A DNA stretch of 64,000 nucleotides from an uncultured Dehalococcoidia bacterium. Lineage in GTDB: Bacteria > Chloroflexota > Dehalococcoidia > Lucifugimonadales > UBA3495. The notes under the pieces are model-generated. The model was not told the origin of the DNA. It saw only the letters and a program-made list of their open reading frames with translations, and did no database searches. Each line of letters starts with the position of its first letter. The first letter of the stretch is position 1. The position numbers and the translations under genes are program-made. Below are positions 1,582 to 64,000 of the stretch, one piece after another. The stretch spans positions 479,416-543,415 of the forward strand of contig OY282494.1 in the NCBI GenBank assembly GCA_958296385.1, given 5' to 3'.

Positions 1582-1872
1582 CTATTCCCTCGTCCTGCGT
1601 ACAAAGGCGTTGGCGGATACGATTGCCTCCCAGGTAGCCACGACCGCGCCGGTACTCGCCCACACCAAAGCGCAACCCACCAGCGTTACATCAAGCACAT
1701 ATTGTACTATCCGATAAGCCGCCGTATCATAGCCAACCGCAATTCCAATGAGCCATTCCAGCAAGATGCCGGAGCCTACCATAATTGCTGCCATCACCAA
1801 TGACGTCAAAAACGTCAAGGCAGCCGGCAGAACCCGACGCAGAGCCGTTTGTAATTCCTCACGCCACATCAT
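1582..1872 (-). CDS. small hypothetical membrane protein with two TM segments
   Basis: A 96-residue protein with two hydrophobic segments (LTFLTSLVMAAIMVGSGILL and YVLDVTLVGCALVWASTGAVV), a short amphipathic N-terminus and a basic C-terminal tail (FVRRTRE). No family is recognised. It lies four bases upstream of the larger membrane protein in the same direction, which suggests a two-gene operon. The start is an ATG directly followed by a second ATG-like codon pair (MM); either could be used. Confidence 0.5.
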   Translation of the reverse strand: MMWREELQTALRRVLPAALTFLTSLVMAAIMVGSGILLEWLIGIAVGYDTAAYRIVQYVLDVTLVGCALVWASTGAVVATWEAIVSANAFVRRTRE

Positions 1873-1914
1873 GGCAGGATAGTAACACCATTATAAGCCC
1901 TGCCGCATCTGCTC

Positions 1915-3633
1915 CTATGTCTCCCCCGACCTCCGCACGTCGGCCCGCCAGTCGTCCGGGCTGGGCCCCCGGTCAATCAGCACGTCCACCACAGCCGGCA
2001 GCCCCGATGCCTGGGCCTGCCGCAGCGCATCGCCCAAATCGCGCGAATCCGACACCTGCACGCCAAAACACCCAAAGCCCCGGGCCACGGCGGCGTTGTC
2101 CGTTTCCGCAAACTCCGATGCGATGTACTCCCCCGGCGCCTGATGGTGTCGCACCATCCCCAACGCCCCGTCGTTGAACACCACGCAGATAATCGGCAGT
2201 TCGTACTGCATCGCCGTGGACAGCGCGTTGACCGTCATCATATAGCCGCCGTCGCCCGTTACGCCCACCACCGGCCGGCCCGGATACGCAATCTGCAACC
2301 CCACCGCTGCCGGCAGTCCCCAGCCCATGCCGGCCGTCCCGCCGGGGCAAAAGAACGTGTGCGCCTGCTGCGACTGGAACAGATGCGCCATCCACGTCCG
2401 GTTATTCCCCGCGTCCAGCGCGTACACCGTATCGGACGGCATCGTGTCTTGCAGCACCCGCACCACCCGCTGCGGCAGCACCGGCGACGAATCGGTATGC
2501 AGCCCGGCGTCCTCGTAGAACCCCTGCTCCCGCTTGCGTCCGGCCAGCGCGCCGGCCCACTCGCTGCGCCCGCCGGCCGTGCTTGCCGACGCCTCCGCCG
2601 ATGCCTCCACCAGCTGCCCCAGGATGCTGCCGGCATCCCCAATCAGGCCCAGCTCTACCGGGAACGTCCAGCCGGCGTTGCGGTCGTCAATGTCAATCTG
2701 GATGATGCGCTGCCCGCGCGGGTTGAACACGTTGGGCTGTTCCCGCACCGTATCCTGCGGACTCAGTTTCGCCCCCACGATAACCACCGTGTCGGCGTCG
2801 CCCACCGCCCGGTTCGCCGCCTCTTGCCCGTAGATGCCCACCATGCCCACCGCCAGCGGGTGCGTTTCGGCGATGGCCGACTTGCCCTTGTAGCTGGTGG
2901 CCACCGGCGCGCCCCACTGCTCCGCCAGCTGCTGCAAAACGCCATGCGCCCGCGCCATGTGCACCCCGTTGCCGGCCACGATGACCGGCCGTTTCGACTG
3001 CGCCAGTATCTCGATTGCCCGGTCAATGTCCTGCGGCGCCGCCTGCGGCTTGGCGGTGTTCAGATACCCCGCCGTGTCGTGGATAAACGGCGGCGATTCC
3101 AAATCCACCTCGCCGCCGATGGACGCCGTGCGCATCAGCAGGCACGTCGGGCCGGGCCGCCCGCTGGTGGCGTGCTTGATAGCCAGCTGCGCCCCCAGCG
3201 CCGCCTCTTTCGGCGACGTCGCCAGCGTGGTGTACTTGGTCATCGCGCGAAAGATGTTGTGCAAGTCAATGCTGCCGTACTCACCGGCCCCCGACTGGTT
3301 GGCCGGATGCTGCCCCACGCCGCCATCCGAGGTATCGGTAAGCACCAGCATCGGGCTGCTGGAGAGCATCGCCTCCATAATCCCAAAAGCGGCGTTAGAC
3401 CCCATAAACAGCCCCTGCCCCATAATCACCGCCGGCTTGCCCGTAGCCCGCGCGTAAGCATCGGCCATAATCGCCGCCGTCTGCTCGTGCCGCGCCAGGT
3501 AAGTGCTAATCACCCCCTCCTTACCCACCAGCCGCCCAAAAATCTGCCCCGTCCCCCCGCCCGGAATACCAAACACGGCATCAATCCCGGCCTCCTCCAA
3601 AAACTGCACAATAAGCTCGTTAGCCTGCGGCAT
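1915..3633 (-). CDS. thiamine-pyrophosphate enzyme, acetolactate synthase-like
   Basis: A 572-residue, three-domain TPP enzyme of the POX/acetolactate synthase superfamily. The N-terminal PYR domain has the catalytic glutamate in RHEQ (Glu50) and the sequence ADAYARATGKP. The C-terminal PP domain has the cofactor motif GDGGYMMTVNALSTA near residue 460 and a following VVFNDGALGM. A strong GGAGGTG ribosome site precedes the ATG. No small regulatory subunit or ilvC neighbour is present, so a biosynthetic acetolactate synthase role is doubtful. A decarboxylase or carboligase of a catabolic pathway (benzoylformate decarboxylase, sulfopyruvate or oxalyl-CoA type) is equally possible. Confidence 0.85.
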   Translation of the reverse strand: MPQANELIVQFLEEAGIDAVFGIPGGGTGQIFGRLVGKEGVISTYLARHEQTAAIMADAYARATGKPAVIMGQGLFMGSNAAFGIMEAMLSSSPMLVLTDTSDGGVGQHPANQSGAGEYGSIDLHNIFRAMTKYTTLATSPKEAALGAQLAIKHATSGRPGPTCLLMRTASIGGEVDLESPPFIHDTAGYLNTAKPQAAPQDIDRAIEILAQSKRPVIVAGNGVHMARAHGVLQQLAEQWGAPVATSYKGKSAIAETHPLAVGMVGIYGQEAANRAVGDADTVVIVGAKLSPQDTVREQPNVFNPRGQRIIQIDIDDRNAGWTFPVELGLIGDAGSILGQLVEASAEASASTAGGRSEWAGALAGRKREQGFYEDAGLHTDSSPVLPQRVVRVLQDTMPSDTVYALDAGNNRTWMAHLFQSQQAHTFFCPGGTAGMGWGLPAAVGLQIAYPGRPVVGVTGDGGYMMTVNALSTAMQYELPIICVVFNDGALGMVRHHQAPGEYIASEFAETDNAAVARGFGCFGVQVSDSRDLGDALRQAQASGLPAVVDVLIDRGPSPDDWRADVRRSGET

Positions 3634-51118: not shown

Positions 51119-52516
51119 TCACACCGCCCCGCCAACCCGCAGCGCCGCCCCAATCGCATCCAGCACCGAACCATCCTGCGACGGCAAAACCGTGCGCGGG
51201 TCCAGCCTGACCGCATCATCCTCAATCCGCGCAATCACCGGCGGTTCCTGCTCCCGCAGAGCAGACAACAACCCCTCCGGCCCGCCCCTCGACAAACTAC
51301 CCGGCACCGACAACGCCCACGATTCCAGCGTCTCACCCGGCAAACTGCCGCCCCCGATTGCCGACTGCGCCGGCATCACCGCCGTCTCGACCCCGGTAGC
51401 CGCCAAAACCCGCCCCCGCCAGTCCTCGGCCCGCGCCCGGATTTCGTCCGCCGTCGCCGCGATCATCCGCCACACCGGAACCTTGCGTTCCGCCTCACCC
51501 GCCAGGAAGTGCGTCAAAGTTGCCGTCAGGCTGGCCAGGCTCATTTTGTCGATGCGTACCGCCCTGGCCAGCGGATGCCGTTCCAGCCGTGCCACCAGTT
51601 CCCGCTTGCCCACCACGATTCCGGCCTGCGGCCCCCCCAGCAATTTATCCCCGGAGAAAAACACCAGCCCCACGCCCGCCGCGATCGCCTCCTGCGGCAT
51701 CGGTTCGTGCGCCAGCCCGTACCGTTCCGTCGGCAGCAAAGCCCCGCTGCCCACGTCGTGCAGCACCGGAACCCCCCTTTGCGCCCCAAGTTCCACCAGC
51801 TCCCGTTCACCCACCACTGCGGTAAAACCTTCCACCCGAAAGTTGCTGGCGTGTGCTTTCAAGAACGCCCCGGTTTTATCGGTAACCGCATCGGCATAGT
51901 CCCGCACGTAGGTACGATTGGTCGTGCCCACGTCAACCAATGTACAGCCACTCTGCGCCAGCACGTCCGGTATCCGAAACCCGCCGCCAATCTCGATAGC
52001 CTCGCTGCGTGAAACGATAACCTCCCGCCCCGCCGCCAGCGCCGACAGCCCCAGCAGCAGCGCCGACGCATTGTTGTTAACCGCCAGCGCCGCCTCCGCC
52101 CCGGTAATTTTACGCAGCAAAGATTGCAGATGCGCCTGCCGCGACCCCCGGCGTCCGGTTGCCAGGTCAATTTCCAAATCGGAATACCCCCGCGCCGCGT
52201 TCTCCGCAGCCCGCTGCGCCTCGTCACTCAAAGGCGCCCGCCCCAAATTAGTATGAATTATCACCCCCGTAGCGTTGATAACCGGCCGCGGCGTCGGCCT
52301 GACCAAATCCGCCAGCAGCCCCCGCACCGCCTCGACCACCTCAACCTCAGACGGCGCCGCCCCCCCGGCCAAAACCCGCTGCCGGGCCTCGCCAACCGCA
52401 TCGCGCGCCAGCTCCACCAGCCACGCCCGCCCGTAGCCCTCCACCAAGTCGGCCAGCGCCGCATAGCTCACCACCCGCTCCACGCTGGGCAAATTACGCA
52501 GCTGCTCTGCTCTCAT
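51119..52516 (-). CDS. selA: L-seryl-tRNA(Sec) selenium transferase
   Basis: A 465-residue PLP enzyme that turns seryl-tRNA(Sec) into selenocysteinyl-tRNA(Sec). Family marks are LPSVERVV at the N-terminus, RPVINATGVIIHTNLGRAPL, the segment DVGTTNRTYVRDY, and the cofactor lysine in FFSGDKLLGGPQAGIVVG. The full bacterial length makes a real SelA likely, rather than an archaeal SelA-like protein. selB, selD and the tRNA(Sec) gene are not in the window. A candidate selenoprotein is about 11 kb away. The ATG used is the second possible start; a TTG two codons upstream is an alternative. Confidence 0.92.
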   Translation of the reverse strand: MRAEQLRNLPSVERVVSYAALADLVEGYGRAWLVELARDAVGEARQRVLAGGAAPSEVEVVEAVRGLLADLVRPTPRPVINATGVIIHTNLGRAPLSDEAQRAAENAARGYSDLEIDLATGRRGSRQAHLQSLLRKITGAEAALAVNNNASALLLGLSALAAGREVIVSRSEAIEIGGGFRIPDVLAQSGCTLVDVGTTNRTYVRDYADAVTDKTGAFLKAHASNFRVEGFTAVVGERELVELGAQRGVPVLHDVGSGALLPTERYGLAHEPMPQEAIAAGVGLVFFSGDKLLGGPQAGIVVGKRELVARLERHPLARAVRIDKMSLASLTATLTHFLAGEAERKVPVWRMIAATADEIRARAEDWRGRVLAATGVETAVMPAQSAIGGGSLPGETLESWALSVPGSLSRGGPEGLLSALREQEPPVIARIEDDAVRLDPRTVLPSQDGSVLDAIGAALRVGGAV

Positions 52517-52522
52517 ATCCAA

Positions 52523-57123: not shown

Positions 57124-57708
57124 ATGTTCACCGGAATAGTTGAGGAAGTAGGGCAGGTCGTTAGCCTGCAAGATTACCGTTTCACCATCGCGGCCCGCAA
57201 AACGCTGTCCGACGTCAAGCTTGGCGACAGCATCGCCGTCAACGGCGCCTGCCTTACCGTAGTGCAGTTTGACGCCGCCGGTTTCGCCGTCGACCTCGCC
57301 CCCGAAACCCTGCGCCGCACCTCCCTGGGCCAGGCCGCCCCCGGCAGCGCCGTCAACCTGGAGCGCGCCTTGTCCGCCTCCGACCGCATGGGCGGCCACA
57401 TCGTGCAGGGCCACGTGGACGGCGCCGGCGCCATCACCGCCCTTACCCCCGAAGCCGACTGCTACATTATGGAAATTGAGGCCCCGGACAATCTGACCCC
57501 CTACATCGTAGAAAAGGGGTTCATCGCGGTTGACGGAATCAGCCTTACAGTGGTACAAAAGGCGTTACAGCGTTTCACCATTTCGGTGATTCCCTTCACT
57601 ATGCAAAACACGAACCTGTCCGAAAAGTCGGTTGGCGATTTGGTGAACCTCGAGGCGGACATCCTCGCCAAATACGTCGAATCCCTCTTGGAAAGCCGGT
57701 TCCGCTAA
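57124..57708 (+). CDS. ribE: riboflavin synthase, alpha chain
   Basis: A 194-residue protein with two lumazine-binding halves. The first begins FTGIVEEVGQVVSL and contains GDSIAVNGACLTVVQFDAAGFAVDLAPETLRRTSLG; the second begins HIVQGHVDGAGAIT and has VEKGFIAVDGISLTVV. It joins two lumazines into riboflavin. It follows ribD directly. The gene for lumazine synthase (ribH), which supplies the substrate, is not in this cluster. Confidence 0.93.
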   Translation: MFTGIVEEVGQVVSLQDYRFTIAARKTLSDVKLGDSIAVNGACLTVVQFDAAGFAVDLAPETLRRTSLGQAAPGSAVNLERALSASDRMGGHIVQGHVDGAGAITALTPEADCYIMEIEAPDNLTPYIVEKGFIAVDGISLTVVQKALQRFTISVIPFTMQNTNLSEKSVGDLVNLEADILAKYVESLLESRFR

Positions 57709-57741
57709 ATCCCTTTGATAAGGCATCGGACGCTATAACAG

Positions 57742-58377
57742 ATGCAGTTGGCAAGCATCGCAACGGGTCTCCAAGACCTCAAAGCAGGCAAGTTCCTTAT
57801 CGTCGTTGACGACGAGGACCGCGAGAACGAAGGCGACTTGGTCATGCCGGCCGAGTGCGTTACTCCGGCGGCGGTCAACTTTATGGTCACCCACGCCCGG
57901 GGCCAGCTCTGTATGCCCATGACCGCCGCCCGCTTGCAGGAGCTGGACATCCCCCTCTTGCCCAGCCGCAACTCCGATTCCCCCATGCCAACTGCGTTCA
58001 CCATGCCCGTTGACTACGCCGTCAACACCTCAACCGGCATCTCCGCCGAAGACCGCGCCGCCACCATCCGCGCCCTCATCGACCCCCAGTCCCGGCCCCA
58101 GGATTTCATCCAGCCCGGCCATCTGTTCCCCCTCCGCTATCATCCCGGCGGCGTCCTCGTCCGCCCCGGCCACACCGAAGCCATCATTGACCTCTGCAAC
58201 CTCGCCAATATGTACCCCGCCGGCGTCGTCTGCGAGATTATGAAAGACGACGGCGCCATGGCCCGGATGCCCGACCTGATGGCCATGGCCAAAGCACATT
58301 CCCTGAACGTCCTCTCCATCGCCGACCTGATTGCCCACCGCCGCCAATACGACCCGGCGCCCCGCGCAACCCACTGA
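57742..58377 (+). CDS. ribB: 3,4-dihydroxy-2-butanone 4-phosphate synthase
   Basis: A 211-residue single-domain RibB. It has LIVVDDEDRENEGDLVMPAE, the acid loop STGISAEDRAATI, PGHLFPLRYHPGGVLVRPGHTEAIIDL and MARMPDL, all typical of the active enzyme, which makes the four-carbon unit of riboflavin from ribulose 5-phosphate. It is followed at once by a second, fused copy of the same domain, so the function is encoded twice in a row. Confidence 0.9.
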   Translation: MQLASIATGLQDLKAGKFLIVVDDEDRENEGDLVMPAECVTPAAVNFMVTHARGQLCMPMTAARLQELDIPLLPSRNSDSPMPTAFTMPVDYAVNTSTGISAEDRAATIRALIDPQSRPQDFIQPGHLFPLRYHPGGVLVRPGHTEAIIDLCNLANMYPAGVVCEIMKDDGAMARMPDLMAMAKAHSLNVLSIADLIAHRRQYDPAPRATH

Positions 58378-58435
58378 CCCGGCCGGCGCTTGCGCCCCGT
58401 CCCAACCTATCCTTATAACTGACCCCGGAGGAACA

Positions 58436-59668
58436 ATGCCCCTTTGCAGCCTTGATGAGGCGCTGGAAGACCTGGCCTCCGGAAAGTTTGTCATCGTTGT
58501 GGACGATGAGGGCCGCGAGAACGAAGGCGACCTGTTCCTGTTCGCTGAGCAGGCCACCCCGGAAGCCATCACCTTTATGGTAACCCACGCCCGCGGCCTG
58601 GTCTGCATCTCCATGACCGGCGACCGCCTGGACGAGTTGCAGATTCCCAACCTGCCCAGCCGCAACTCCCCCACGTCCCAGCCTACCGCTTTCACCACCT
58701 CCGTTGACCACAAGTGGGAAACCTCCACCGGCATCTCCGCCCACGACCGCAGCGCAACCATCCAGGCCCTCATCAACCCGGCGTCCCAGCCCGGCGATTT
58801 CGTCCATCCGGGGCATATGTTCCCCCTGCGCGCCCATCCCCGCGGCGTCTTGGCCCGCCCCGGGCACACCGAGGCCATCATTGACCTCTGCAAACAGGCC
58901 GGCGCCTACCCCGCCGGCGTCGTCTGCGAAATAATGAACGAGGACGGCAGCATGGCCCGCCTGCCCGACCTGGAGCTGTTCGCCGTCAAACACGACATCA
59001 AGATTTTCAGCATCGCCCAGCTCATCGCCCACCGCCGCATCAACGAGAAACTGATTACCCGCGCCGCCGAAGCCAACCTGCCCACCAAGTACGGCGCCGC
59101 CCGCATCATCGGCTACCGCAGCTCCATTGACGCCGGCGAACACGTCGCCCTGGTAGTCGGCGATTGGCAGCCCGACGATGCCGTCCTCGTCCGCGTCCAC
59201 AGCGAATGTCTCACCGGCGATGCTTTCGGCAGCCTCAAGTGCGACTGCGGCGAGCAGCTCGACTTGGCCATGCGGATGATTTTCGAGAACGGCTCCGGCG
59301 TCCTGGTTTATCTCCGCCAGGAAGGACGCGGCATCGGCCTGCACAACAAGATCAAAGCCTACGCCCTCCAGGACGACGGCCTGGACACCATCGAGGCCAA
59401 CGTAGCCCTGGGGTTCCAGCCCGACGAGCGCGAGTACGACCTCGCCGTTCAGATTATGCGCGACCTCAACGTCACCCGGGCCCGCCTCGTCACCAACAAC
59501 CCCCACAAAGTAGCCGGCATCAGTAGCCTCGGCGTCCAGGTAACCGACCGCGTCAGCCTCACCGTCCCCCCCAACCAGTCCAACGAACAATACCTCCGCA
59601 CCAAGCGCGACAGCATGGGCCACCTGCTATCCCGAATACCAGCCAACCCACCCCAGGTAGCCGACTGA
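58436..59668 (+). CDS. ribBA: bifunctional DHBP synthase/GTP cyclohydrolase II
   Basis: A 410-residue fusion. Residues 1-205 are a RibB domain (VIVVDDEGRENEGDL, STGISAHDRSATI, RPGHTEAIIDL). Residues 210-410 are GTP cyclohydrolase II with the zinc site SECLTGDAFGSLKCDCGEQL and the motif RQEGRGIGLHNKIKAY. The RibA part opens GTP for riboflavin synthesis. GGAGGAAC precedes the ATG. It is separated from the single RibB gene by only 58 bases, so both are probably on one transcript. Confidence 0.95.
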   Translation: MPLCSLDEALEDLASGKFVIVVDDEGRENEGDLFLFAEQATPEAITFMVTHARGLVCISMTGDRLDELQIPNLPSRNSPTSQPTAFTTSVDHKWETSTGISAHDRSATIQALINPASQPGDFVHPGHMFPLRAHPRGVLARPGHTEAIIDLCKQAGAYPAGVVCEIMNEDGSMARLPDLELFAVKHDIKIFSIAQLIAHRRINEKLITRAAEANLPTKYGAARIIGYRSSIDAGEHVALVVGDWQPDDAVLVRVHSECLTGDAFGSLKCDCGEQLDLAMRMIFENGSGVLVYLRQEGRGIGLHNKIKAYALQDDGLDTIEANVALGFQPDEREYDLAVQIMRDLNVTRARLVTNNPHKVAGISSLGVQVTDRVSLTVPPNQSNEQYLRTKRDSMGHLLSRIPANPPQVAD

Positions 59669-59846: not shown

Positions 59847-60960
59847 TCACCCCGGCTCGTCGCCCCCCAGCCTGCTCACCAGATAGGACTCAATAAACCC
59901 GTCAATCCCCCCGGCCAGCACTGCGTCAGTGTTCCCCGACTGGTAGTCCGTCCGGTGGTCTTTCACCGACTTGTAAGGATGCAGCACGTAGCTGCGTATC
60001 TGGTTGCCCCACTCTGCCGACACCCGCTCCCCCCGCAAATTGGAAATCTGCCGCGCCCGTTCCTCCTCCTGCCGCGCCAGCAGCCGCGCCCGCAGGATAC
60101 GCATGGCATAGTCCCGGTTCTGGTGCTGCGACCGTTCCGTTTGGCACGACACTACAATCCCGCTGGGCAGATGCGTCAGCCGCACCGCCGATGCCACCTT
60201 CTGCACGTTCTGCCCCCCCGGCCCGCTGGAGCGGAAAAAGTCCATCTTGATGTCCTCCGTGCGGATTTCAACCTCGCTGTCCTCGTCCAAAGCCGCCGGC
60301 AGCACCTCCACCCGCGCAAACGACGTCTGCCGCCGCCGCGCCGGGTCAAACGGCGACATCCTAACCAGCCGGTGCACCCCCACCTCCGCGCTCAGGTAGC
60401 CAAAGGCATACGGCCCCCCAATTTCCAGCGTGCCGGTGCGCAACCCGGCCTCGTCGCCGTAAGCCGTATCCAGCACCTGCACCGGGCGATTGCCCCCCTG
60501 CGCCCACCCCGCGTACATCCCCACCAGCATTTCCACCCAATCGTGCGAGTCCGTACCGCCCGCCCCGGAATGGATCGTCAGAATACCCGGCCGGTTATCG
60601 TAGGGCCCCGACAGCGTAAGCTGCATCTCCGCCTTGGCCAAATCAACAGCGACGCTCCCGGTCTCCGCGGCCAGCTCGTCAAACAGACTGCCATCGTCGT
60701 TCTCGATAGCCAGCTCGGTAAGCTCCAGCAGATCCCCCACCCGCGCTTCCAGCGCGCGCCACAAGTCAACCGACTGCTGGAGTTGCCCCAACTCCTGCAT
60801 TTTCCGCTGCGCCGTACCCGGGTCATCCCAAAAATCCGCCGCCGCCGCCGCCCGGTTCAGCTCCGCTATCGACTGCTCCCGTCCCGCCAGGTCAAAGCCG
60901 CTCCACGACGGAGTGGAGCTTGGCGGACATATCAACAAGTTGCTGGCGAATTTCTTCCAT
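59847..60960 (-). CDS. prfB: peptide chain release factor 2 with programmed +1 frameshift
   Basis: The protein is made by a +1 shift. The first frame starts at ATG 60960 (after GGGAATGAG) and reads MEEIRQQLVDMSAKLHSVVERL, then meets TGA at 60894-60892. Skipping one base after CTT continues with DLAGREQSIAELN to the stop, giving about 370 residues. The site GGAG-CGG-CTT-TGA-C matches the known RF2 signal, with the SD-like GGAG three bases before CTT. The body has the SPF anticodon tripeptide (MSPFDPARRR) and the GGQ motif (SGPGGQNVQK). RF2 ends translation at UAA and UGA, so the shift is autoregulatory. A TATAAT lies at 61009-61014 on this strand. Confidence 0.96.
60891..60906 (-). promoter_or_regulatory. 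prfB +1 ribosomal frameshift site
   Basis: Slippery CTT followed by TGA C, with GGAG placed three bases upstream of CTT, the same spacing as in the E. coli RF2 mRNA. Low RF2 leaves the UGA unread and raises the chance of a shift. Confidence 0.95.
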
Positions 60961-61139
60961 CTCATTCCCGATACAATAGCGTTCTGCCGATACCGTCGGC
61001 GCACCGCCATTATACATCAGCCGCCCGCCCCAAATCCGTTATACTTACTAACGCTAATTCCACTGTCCCGCGGCCCCGCCATCCCACCGGCGCTGCGCCG
61101 CCCCACGCCACGATTTACAGTTACAGGCAGGTTTGCACA

Positions 61140-63040: not shown

Positions 63041-63910
63041 CTACTGCGCCAGCCCCTCAAACGCCCCCCGCAAAGTCGCCGCGTCAGCAACGCTGCCGTA
63101 CCCCTTGCGGAACGTAATCACCCCGTCCCCATCCAGAGCCAGCATCGACGACTGGCTGACTATCCGCAAGTCCCGCAGCATCCGACCCACCGGCTGCGCC
63201 GACGTAATACCGGCATACCCCTCGCCGGCAGCGTAAGAATCCAGTCGCGCGGCGTCCTCGCTGAACGACACCAGGTAAAAATCCACTTCCCCGGCATATT
63301 CCGTAACAATAGGGCTCAGCGTCCGCAACTCGGCGCGGCACGCTGGTCACCACGTCGCAAAATACATCATAAACACCGGCCGCCCCGCCGCCGTCAGCGA
63401 CTCCGATGCAACCTCAGTCCCATCGGTCAACTGCATCACAAAAGCCGGCGCCATCTCCCCCACGCTGGTGCCCACCGGAACCGGCTCCGCCGGCACATCC
63501 GTAGGCGGTATCGGCGTTGGCGGCGTTTCCGTCGGCGGTAGCGGTGTCGGCGGCACATCCGTAGGTGGCGGCAGCGTTGCCGGTTCGTCCGTCGGCGCCG
63601 CATCCGTAGCCGCCGGCGCCGCCGTCGGTGCGTCCGTAGCCGGCGGCAATGTTGCCATCTGCGCCGCAGTCGCCGACGGCGATTCCGTCGGCTGCTCTGC
63701 CGTCGGCCTGACCACCGCAGCCACCGTCGCTGTCGGAGCGGACACCACAGCCGCAGCAGTAGTAGCCGTCGGAACGCTAACCGTCTGCGCCGCCTGCGGC
63801 ACCGACATCGCCGCCTCCGGCCCCGGAGCGTCCCCGCCCCCGCACGCCAGCAAAGCCGCCCCCGTTATGGTGACCGCCGTCAAAGTGGCTATGATTTTGG
63901 CTTTAATCAT
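63041..63910 (-). CDS. thioredoxin-like (TlpA/AhpC-type) lipoprotein, selenocysteine at an in-frame TGA
   Basis: Reading through one TGA gives a 289-residue protein. It opens with a lipoprotein signal (IIATLTAVTITGAALLAC), then a Pro/Thr/Ala-rich linker to about residue 155, then a thioredoxin-fold domain (GEMAPAFVMQLTDGTEV, PVFMMYFATW-U-PAC, AELRTLSPIVTEYAGEVDFYLVSF). The TGA at 63347-63349 (residue 188) lies exactly where TlpA-type proteins have the first Cys of WCxxC; the second Cys is kept. Downstream the frame is clean and family-like to a normal stop. A hairpin of the bacterial SECIS type follows the TGA, and selA is in the window. A nonsense mutation or sequencing error is the alternative but would have to strike the catalytic codon by chance. 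The ATG is chosen over a TTG 18 bases upstream. Confidence 0.8.
63317..63345 (-). promoter_or_regulatory. candidate bacterial SECIS hairpin
   Basis: Directly after the TGA plus one base: CAGCGT pairs with ACGCTG (6 bp), a single bulged G, then CCGC pairs with GCGG (4 bp), closing the eight-base loop GCCGAGTT. A bulged base below a short stem and a GU in the apical loop are the features needed by SelB in E. coli fdhF; here GU falls 18-19 bases after the TGA. Confidence 0.65.
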
Positions 63911-64000
63911 CAGAATGTGCAGCGTCAACGACGCCAGCGAAGCCTACCCTCATCAGCTTGGCAGCTGAATGTCCCGTTGCCGTTGTTCTCTCTGCTGCTC

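What the first reader, a model, noticed from the sequence alone, without database searches (positions are those of the whole stretch)
63041..63910. Thioredoxin-like lipoprotein with selenocysteine in a UxxC redox site
An in-frame TGA at 63347-63349 separates two same-frame halves of one protein. The residues around it are ATW-TGA-PAC, so the TGA is exactly where TlpA/AhpC-like proteins have their first active-site Cys. The rest of the fold continues normally for about 100 residues. A lipoprotein signal and a long Pro/Thr linker suggest a surface-anchored selenol redox protein. Known selenoproteins include UxxC thioredoxin-like families, but this lipid-anchored architecture is one I do not recall as described. 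Automatic annotation would truncate it.
Basis: partly seen in the sequence, partly recalled or inferred. Interest (0 to 1): 0.9.

Follow-up and report, generated by a model that had tools for sequence, protein, structure and literature searches.

The report
Membrane-anchored selenocysteine thioredoxin-like lipoprotein pair
A gene that automatic annotation would cut in half encodes a membrane-anchored redox protein whose active site uses the rare amino acid selenocysteine; comparisons across dozens of uncultured Chloroflexota genomes make this close to certain, although what the protein reduces is still unknown.

Summary
On the minus strand, complement(63041-63910) encodes a 289-residue lipoprotein whose codon 188 is TGA in the motif ATW-U-PAC. 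The genome has tRNA-Sec, selA (in this window), selB and selD, and selD itself has an in-frame TGA. RF2 is also encoded here, so UGA is otherwise a stop.

The 63 best matches in 50 family genomes all carry an in-frame TGA, and every one whose active site I read has it at this codon. Selection stays purifying beyond it. A conserved stem with loop AGUUR sits exactly 16 nt after the UGA, 97-99% paired with many compensatory changes. The one Cys orthologue found (TGT) lies in a 97%-complete genome without tRNA-Sec or selA, and its hairpin is gone. More distant TlpA/ResA proteins have Cys there.

The gene is the second of a tandem pair: a sister UxxC lipoprotein lies 42 nt upstream, in all 14 genus genomes. 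The fold is ResA/TlpA-like, but the cis-proline is replaced by Ser or Met. No DsbD/CcdA (PF02683) or VKOR was found, so the electron donor and substrate are unknown.

UxxC thioredoxin-like selenoproteins are a known kind. The lipid-anchored, tandem, cis-Pro-less subfamily has no curated NCBIfam model and was not found described in the papers searched.

The parts
63041..63910 (-). Gene B: 289-residue lipid-anchored TlpA/ResA-like selenoprotein, read through the internal TGA
   Evidence: Translation with TGA=U; Pfam AhpC-TSA and Redoxin above gathering cut-off; homologues in 46 of 50 family genomes searched, the 63 best matches all with a TGA
63347..63349 (-). Selenocysteine codon UGA (residue U188) of the U-P-A-C active site; second Cys is codon 191 at 63338-63340
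   Evidence: TGA in 42 of 42 distinct homologues; TGT in the one orthologue from a genome without tRNA-Sec
63319..63336 (-). SECIS hairpin: stem GCGCCG/CGG-(bulged A)-CGC with apical loop AGUUG at 63326-63330, 16 nt after the UGA
   Evidence: 97-99% of cells paired with compensatory changes; Leu codon in the loop is TTR in 41 of 41, TTA 17 of 41 versus 1 of 290 elsewhere. The isolated local MFE of this one sequence prefers a longer overlapping hairpin
63842..63910 (-). Lipoprotein signal peptide ending in the lipobox LLA-C (Cys23 at 63842-63844)
   Evidence: Sequence; lipobox after a hydrophobic stretch in 38 of 42 homologues by a strict rule, and readable by eye in three of the other four
63476..63841 (-). 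About 120-residue linker rich in Pro, Thr, Ala, Glu and Val
   Evidence: 119 residues, 86% P/T/A/S/E/V/Q; length 112-127 in the gene B copies measured in this genus
63044..63475 (-). TlpA/ResA-like redox domain
   Evidence: AlphaFold2 mean pLDDT 95.6, pTM 0.90; best PDB matches ResA, pneumococcal Etrx2, CcmG
63953..64000 (-). 3' end of gene A, the tandem sister UxxC lipoprotein (rest beyond the window at G000:C1:543368-543985), 42 nt upstream of gene B
   Evidence: Pfam AhpC-TSA and Redoxin; the pair is present in all 14 genus genomes
51119..52522 (-). selA, L-seryl-tRNA(Sec) selenium transferase
   Evidence: TIGR00474 536.8 bits against a cut-off of 267.9
59847..61010 (-). prfB, release factor 2: UGA is an ordinary stop elsewhere
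   Evidence: TIGR00020 432 bits against a cut-off of 370; 6 of 35 long ORFs in the window end in TGA

Best explanation
It is a genuine selenoprotein. SelB recognises a hairpin 16 nt downstream of the UGA and inserts selenocysteine at residue 188. The protein is exported and lipid-anchored at Cys23 on the outer face of the cytoplasmic membrane. A long Pro/Thr linker holds out a TlpA/ResA-type thioredoxin domain with a U-P-A-C site. It is probably made together with a sister UxxC lipoprotein encoded 42 nt upstream. Most likely it works as an extracytoplasmic selenol/thiol reductase: the Sec-188 selenolate attacks an oxidised substrate (a disulfide, sulfenic acid, methionine sulfoxide system or peroxide), and Cys-191 resolves the intermediate as a selenenylsulfide, which an unknown donor reduces again. 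Shown by sequence: Sec coding, SECIS, fold family, lipoprotein signal, tandem pair. Inferred: export, co-transcription, direction of electron flow, substrate. The confidence given here is for the lipid-anchored Sec redox protein; the general reductase role is about 0.5 likely, and any specific substrate is open.
For: Sec machinery in the same genome: tRNA-Sec 66.4 bits with anticodon tca, selB 357 bits, selD 374 bits with its own in-frame TGA, selA 537 bits. tRNA-Sec in 18 of 18 high-quality family genomes. The 63 best homologous matches all have TGA. Purifying selection beyond the TGA. SECIS with strong compensatory covariation (97.9% of cells paired, 5 of 6 pairs with double changes, 0 of 500 shuffles reach the covariation score). 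Loop codon anomaly, TTR 41 of 41. The single Cys orthologue sits in a genome without tRNA-Sec or selA, nests inside the U clade and has lost the hairpin. Cys at this column in distant TlpA relatives. TlpA/ResA fold. Lipobox.
Against: No peptide or selenium-labelling data. The synonymous-shuffle folding test is weak for gene B on its own (mean z -0.34, against -1.1 and -1.3 for gene A and other genera), and the window sequence folds locally into a different, longer hairpin. No DsbD/CcdA transmembrane donor (PF02683) and no VKOR were found, so the usual electron partners are missing. The cis-proline is absent in most members, which is unusual for a disulfide reductase.
Confidence: 0.92

Rival explanations
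1. A selenol peroxidase rather than a disulfide reductase: Sec-188 reduces hydroperoxides at the cell surface and Cys-191 resolves, in the manner of Prx-like and GPx-like proteins.
For: Pfam calls it AhpC-TSA and Redoxin. The cis-proline typical of disulfide reductases is replaced by Ser or Met in most members. Sec commonly raises peroxidase rates (established knowledge; PMC2757866 for GPx).
Against: The motif is UxxC, with Sec at the first Cys position as in TlpA, not TxxU as in Sec peroxiredoxins (PMC13188914). The position that is Arg in peroxiredoxins (PMC2757866) is Ser or Met here. The nearest structures are ResA, Etrx and CcmG.
Confidence: 0.25
2. A CcmG/ResA-type protein that reduces apocytochrome c haem-site disulfides.
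For: Closest structural and profile matches include ResA and CcmG/DsbE. The genome has cytochrome c assembly genes (PF01578).
Against: A separate Cys (CGPC) TlpA protein with an intact cis-Pro lies about 3 kb from one of the cytochrome assembly genes and is the more natural candidate. The selenoprotein pair sits between thrS and a DUF255 gene. It scores far below the ResA and DsbE cut-offs.
Confidence: 0.1
3. UGA is a true stop; the gene makes a truncated lipoprotein, and the downstream half is a pseudogene or a separate small ORF.
For: UGA is a stop in this genome (RF2 present; 6 of 35 long ORFs end in TGA). Some termination at UGA is usual even in selenoprotein genes (general knowledge).
Against: In-frame conservation and purifying selection beyond the TGA in dozens of species. 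SECIS covariation. Sense codon TGT in the orthologue from a genome without Sec machinery.
Confidence: 0.01
4. The genome reads TGA as Trp or Gly throughout (code 4 or 25).
For: None beyond the in-frame TGA itself.
Against: RF2 is encoded and TGA is used as a stop in the window. The preceding Trp is TGG in the same gene. The TGA sits at the catalytic Cys column only. tRNA-Sec is present.
Confidence: 0.005

Closest known systems
Prx-like thiol:disulfide oxidoreductase / Redoxin-family / TlpA-like UxxC selenoproteins (PF00578, PF08534; catalogue in PMC13188914; Prx-like 1 and 3 and Trx-like 1 in PMC2398784)
   Same: Same Pfam families, Sec at the first Cys of the CxxC motif, bacterial SECIS directly downstream
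   Different: The catalogues checked do not mention lipoproteins or Chloroflexota. This clade is lipid-anchored, in its genus occurs as a tandem pair, and mostly lacks the cis-Pro. I could not align it with the catalogued representatives, so it may overlap one of the broad GOS categories
ResA / TlpA / CcmG (DsbE) extracytoplasmic thiol-disulfide reductases
   Same: Fold (TM-score about 0.8 to ResA), position of the redox motif, extracytoplasmic location (inferred here)
   Different: Sec instead of the first Cys, cis-Pro replaced by Ser or Met, no nearby or detectable CcdA/DsbD, scores well below the family cut-offs
Streptococcus pneumoniae Etrx1 and Etrx2 surface thioredoxin lipoproteins (PMC3914529)
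   Same: Two lipid-anchored surface thioredoxin-fold proteins; Etrx2 is among the best structural matches
   Different: Etrx proteins are Cys-based, encoded with CcdA partners and MsrAB2. Here no PF02683 protein was found and the two genes are adjacent
Second UxxC lipoprotein family of the same genus (APW-U-PHC; L140-L143)
   Same: Lipoprotein-like N-terminus and a Pro/Thr linker (from the printed sequences), UxxC, SECIS with the same AGUU loop
   Different: Different sequence, intact cis-Pro loop (GVP), single gene elsewhere in the genome

Membership tests
Bacterial selenoprotein | In-frame TGA conserved at a redox Cys column | tested here: met
   42 of 42 distinct close homologues TGA; Cys in the G206 orthologue and in distant TlpA relatives
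Bacterial selenoprotein | tRNA-Sec, SelA, SelB and SelD in the genome | tested here: met
Bacterial selenoprotein | SECIS after the UGA: stem of 4-16 bp, loop 3-9 nt, G in the first two loop positions, loop 16-37 nt from the UGA (model in PMC13188914) | tested here: met
   6-bp stem, 5-nt loop AGUUR, spacing 16 nt, covariation; for the window sequence alone an alternative longer hairpin is more stable
Bacterial selenoprotein | Selenium actually incorporated | not testable with these tools
   Needs mass spectrometry or 75Se labelling
TlpA/ResA-like thioredoxin fold (AhpC-TSA/Redoxin) | Profile match above the curated cut-off and matching fold | tested here: met
   PF00578 32.8 bits against 26, PF08534 30.7 against 26.6; Foldseek E 2e-10 to ResA
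TlpA/ResA-like thioredoxin fold (AhpC-TSA/Redoxin) | cis-proline opposite the active site, as in disulfide reductases | tested here: not met
   Automatic call on 65 clade rows: Ser 45, Met 9, Ala 2, Pro 2, Thr 1, Leu 1, not called 5; three of the uncalled rows read as Ser and two as Ala by eye (sequences)
ResA, DsbE/CcmG proper | Score above the NCBIfam cut-off | tested here: not met
   27-32 bits against cut-offs of 123-359
Etrx-type system | CcdA/DsbD-type membrane donor | tested here: not met
   No PF02683 match at E <= 0.01 in the own genome; the same search rings in 10 of 14 controls. Other donor families not searched
Lipoprotein | Signal peptide with lipobox | tested here: met
   LLA-C at residues 20-23; conserved in homologues. 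Lipidation itself not testable here
Sec peroxiredoxin (TxxU) | Thr at the first position, Sec at the second, Arg at the cis-Pro position | tested here: not met
   UxxC with Ser or Met at the cis-Pro position

The most novel reading that the evidence does not exclude
A tandem pair of lipid-anchored UxxC proteins without the cis-proline forms an extracytoplasmic selenol relay or selenol peroxidase of a lineage of mostly uncultured marine Chloroflexota. It works without DsbD/CcdA, takes its electrons from a so far unknown donor, and has a catalytic site in which the missing cis-Pro changes substrate handling or allows metal binding.
Probability: 0.15. Interest if true: 0.75.

Novelty: new variant of a known kind. 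Interest (0 to 1): 0.52.

Why it matters
The evidence is close to textbook: a conserved UGA at a catalytic position, a covarying SECIS, and a natural reversion to Cys, with loss of the hairpin, in a relative that lacks the Sec machinery. It adds to the selenoproteome of Dehalococcoidia/SAR202-type Chloroflexota, for which a search for 'SAR202' plus 'selenoprotein' found no paper in the held library. It also shows selenol chemistry placed outside the cytoplasmic membrane in duplicate. Automatic annotation, which has no NCBIfam model for it at cut-off, would split or truncate each copy. The lost cis-Pro and the missing DsbD/CcdA raise a testable question about how such a protein is reduced.

Tried and rejected
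Pseudogene, true stop or frameshift: rejected by conservation, dN/dS and the Cys orthologue. Genome-wide TGA recoding: rejected by RF2 and TGA stop usage. A first fold of 66 nt gave z -0.79 and the synonymous-shuffle test was weak for gene B, so I relied on covariation and codon bias instead. The full no-bulge helix on the mixed alignment paired only 75%, because the genus copies carry a bulged base; split by group it is 97-99%. Rfam scan of the locus: no family reached its cut-off. Role in cytochrome c maturation considered and down-weighted. Gene neighbours give no clear partner: synteny with thrS and a DUF255 gene holds in the genus only.

Full report
OBSERVATION. The gene lies on the minus strand, complement(63041..63910). 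Read with TGA as Sec it gives a 289-residue protein with U188 at complement(63349..63347) in the context MMYFATW-U-PACRAEL. The plus-strand frame at the same coordinates is not a gene.

SEC MACHINERY. The window belongs to a 3.298-Mb single-contig genome (G000). It has tRNA-Sec above the Rfam cut-off (66.4 against 47 bits), confirmed by ARAGORN with anticodon tca. It has selB (357 against 242 bits) and selD (374 against 125 bits). SelD itself has an in-frame TGA in SHCAG-U-AAK. selA lies inside this window at complement(51119..52522) with 537 bits. UGA is not recoded wholesale: RF2 is encoded at complement(59847..61010) and 6 of 35 long ORFs in the window stop at TGA.

HOMOLOGUES. In 50 genomes of the same family, 46 have a match, and the 63 best matches all contain an in-frame TGA. 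Extraction shows it at the same codon, motif [F][A][TS][W]-U-PxC-RxE(L). Across 42 distinct sequences from 29 loci, TGA is 42 of 42 and the second Cys is 42 of 42. tRNA-Sec is found in 18 of 18 family genomes of high quality. Outside the clade the same column is Cys (WCPPCRAEL) in Bacteroidota, Bacillota, Anaerolineae and others.

NATURAL EXPERIMENT. In a class-wide search of 294 genomes, one strong match without TGA appeared in G206 (E 1e-50). It reads ATW-C-STCRGEL with TGT at the Sec codon. G206 (97% complete) has no tRNA-Sec at E <= 1e-8 and no selA above the cut-off. In a maximum-likelihood tree it nests inside the U clade as sister to a U protein (support 96/93), while the whole 65-row clade is separated from the Cys outgroup with 100/99. 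It shares the clade's missing cis-Pro (LQQSTKIAID), so it is an orthologue that reverted to Cys. Its SECIS has decayed: the loop Leu codon is CTC and the hairpin is gone.

SELECTION AND SECIS. dN/dS over 75 codons downstream of the TGA is about 0.25 (gene B) and 0.14 (gene A). Across the family a 6-bp stem (columns 14-19 with 25-30; one base bulged in the window's genus) closes a loop AGUUR 16 nt after the UGA. Cells paired are 97.0% (other genera) and 98.6% (own genus with the bulge). In a wider set of 16 sequences that includes a second selenoprotein family, 97.9% are paired, 5 of 6 pairs show double changes, the covariation score is 0.68 against 0.16 in shuffles (0 of 500 reach it), and every slid control is far lower. 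At the loop, Leu is TTA or TTG in 41 of 41 (TTA 17 times), while elsewhere in these genes' downstream parts TTA is 1 of 290 Leu codons; Cys homologues use mixed codons. This fits the bacterial SECIS model in PMC13188914. Caveat: the synonymous-shuffle energy test is weak for gene B alone, and the window copy can fold into a longer alternative hairpin.

ARCHITECTURE. A hydrophobic stretch ends in LLA-C (residues 20-23). A lipobox after a hydrophobic stretch is found in 38 of 42 homologues by a strict rule. A linker of about 120 residues rich in P, T, A, E and V follows. The domain model has mean pLDDT 95.6, and its best PDB matches are ResA, pneumococcal Etrx2 and E. coli CcmG (sequence search). 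Pfam: AhpC-TSA and Redoxin above cut-off. No NCBIfam model reaches its cut-off. The position six residues before the conserved Asp, which is the cis-Pro in TlpA-family relatives, is Ser or Met in most members, with Pro retained in two f17 proteins. PMC2757866 notes that this proline is conserved more strongly than CxxC, probably forms part of the polypeptide-binding site and may prevent metal binding, and that peroxiredoxins have Arg there.

TANDEM PAIR. A second UxxC lipoprotein (gene A) ends at window 63953 and lies 42 nt upstream of gene B on the same strand. All 14 genus genomes hold both copies (in G011 gene A is at a contig end). Tandem copies also occur in G001, G003, G021, G145, G228 and G313. 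In the genus the pair sits between convergent thrS and a divergent DUF255 (Thioredox_DsbH) gene; other genera have different neighbours, so no partner is implied.

MECHANISM. The best-supported reading is an extracytoplasmic selenol/thiol reductase: U188 attacks, C191 resolves. The resemblance to the two surface thioredoxin lipoproteins Etrx1 and Etrx2, which pass electrons from CcdA to MsrAB2 (PMC3914529), is a resemblance in working only: no PF02683 protein was found here, nor VKOR. A cytochrome c role is less likely because a Cys TlpA with cis-Pro lies about 3 kb from a cytochrome assembly gene. A selenol peroxidase remains possible. Donor and substrate are not established.

NOVELTY. UxxC members of PF00578, PF08534 and TlpA-like families are catalogued (PMC13188914; PMC9312934; PMC2398784), so the kind is known. 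The two reviews do not mention Chloroflexi or lipoproteins in the text searched, and no held paper joins SAR202 and selenoprotein. The lipid-anchored, tandem, mostly cis-Pro-less clade is therefore best called a new variant of a known kind. Overlap with a broad GOS category could not be tested.

Noticed in passing
L140-L143 (G017:C1 ~1144.5k; G018:C1 ~1388.7k; G013:C5 ~506.8k; G007:C46 ~150.9k): A second, separate UxxC lipoprotein family in the same genus (FWAPW-U-PHC), with a normal cis-Pro loop GVP and a SECIS whose loop is again AGUU on an unrelated stem.
   Followed up: partly
L001:1497-1593 and 1608-1937 (-): The tRNA-Sec gene lies 15 nt downstream of a thioredoxin gene (WCGPC) on the same strand.
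   Followed up: no
L056 (G000:C1:1766127-1767047): SelD is itself a predicted selenoprotein (SHCAG-U-AAK).
   Followed up: partly
G228, G270, G313, G331, G342, G075, G341, also G016: Several class genomes have a second, weaker tRNA-Sec match (about 49-55 bits) besides the strong one; it could be a divergent duplicate or another long-arm tRNA.
   Followed up: no
G000:C1:2293619-2294011 and G000:C1:2289684-2290280: A Cys (CGPC) TlpA protein lies about 3 kb from a cytochrome c assembly gene; the genome has no PF02683 (DsbD/CcdA) match.
   Followed up: partly
L153, L155 (genus g40, family f17): Some members of the U clade keep Pro at the cis-Pro position (RQPSKV), so its loss is not uniform in the clade.
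   Followed up: partly
window 57124-59668 (+): Riboflavin synthesis genes lie nearby: riboflavin synthase-like ORF at 57124, ribB-like ORF at 57742 and ribBA-like ORF at 58331, judged from sequence only.
   Followed up: no
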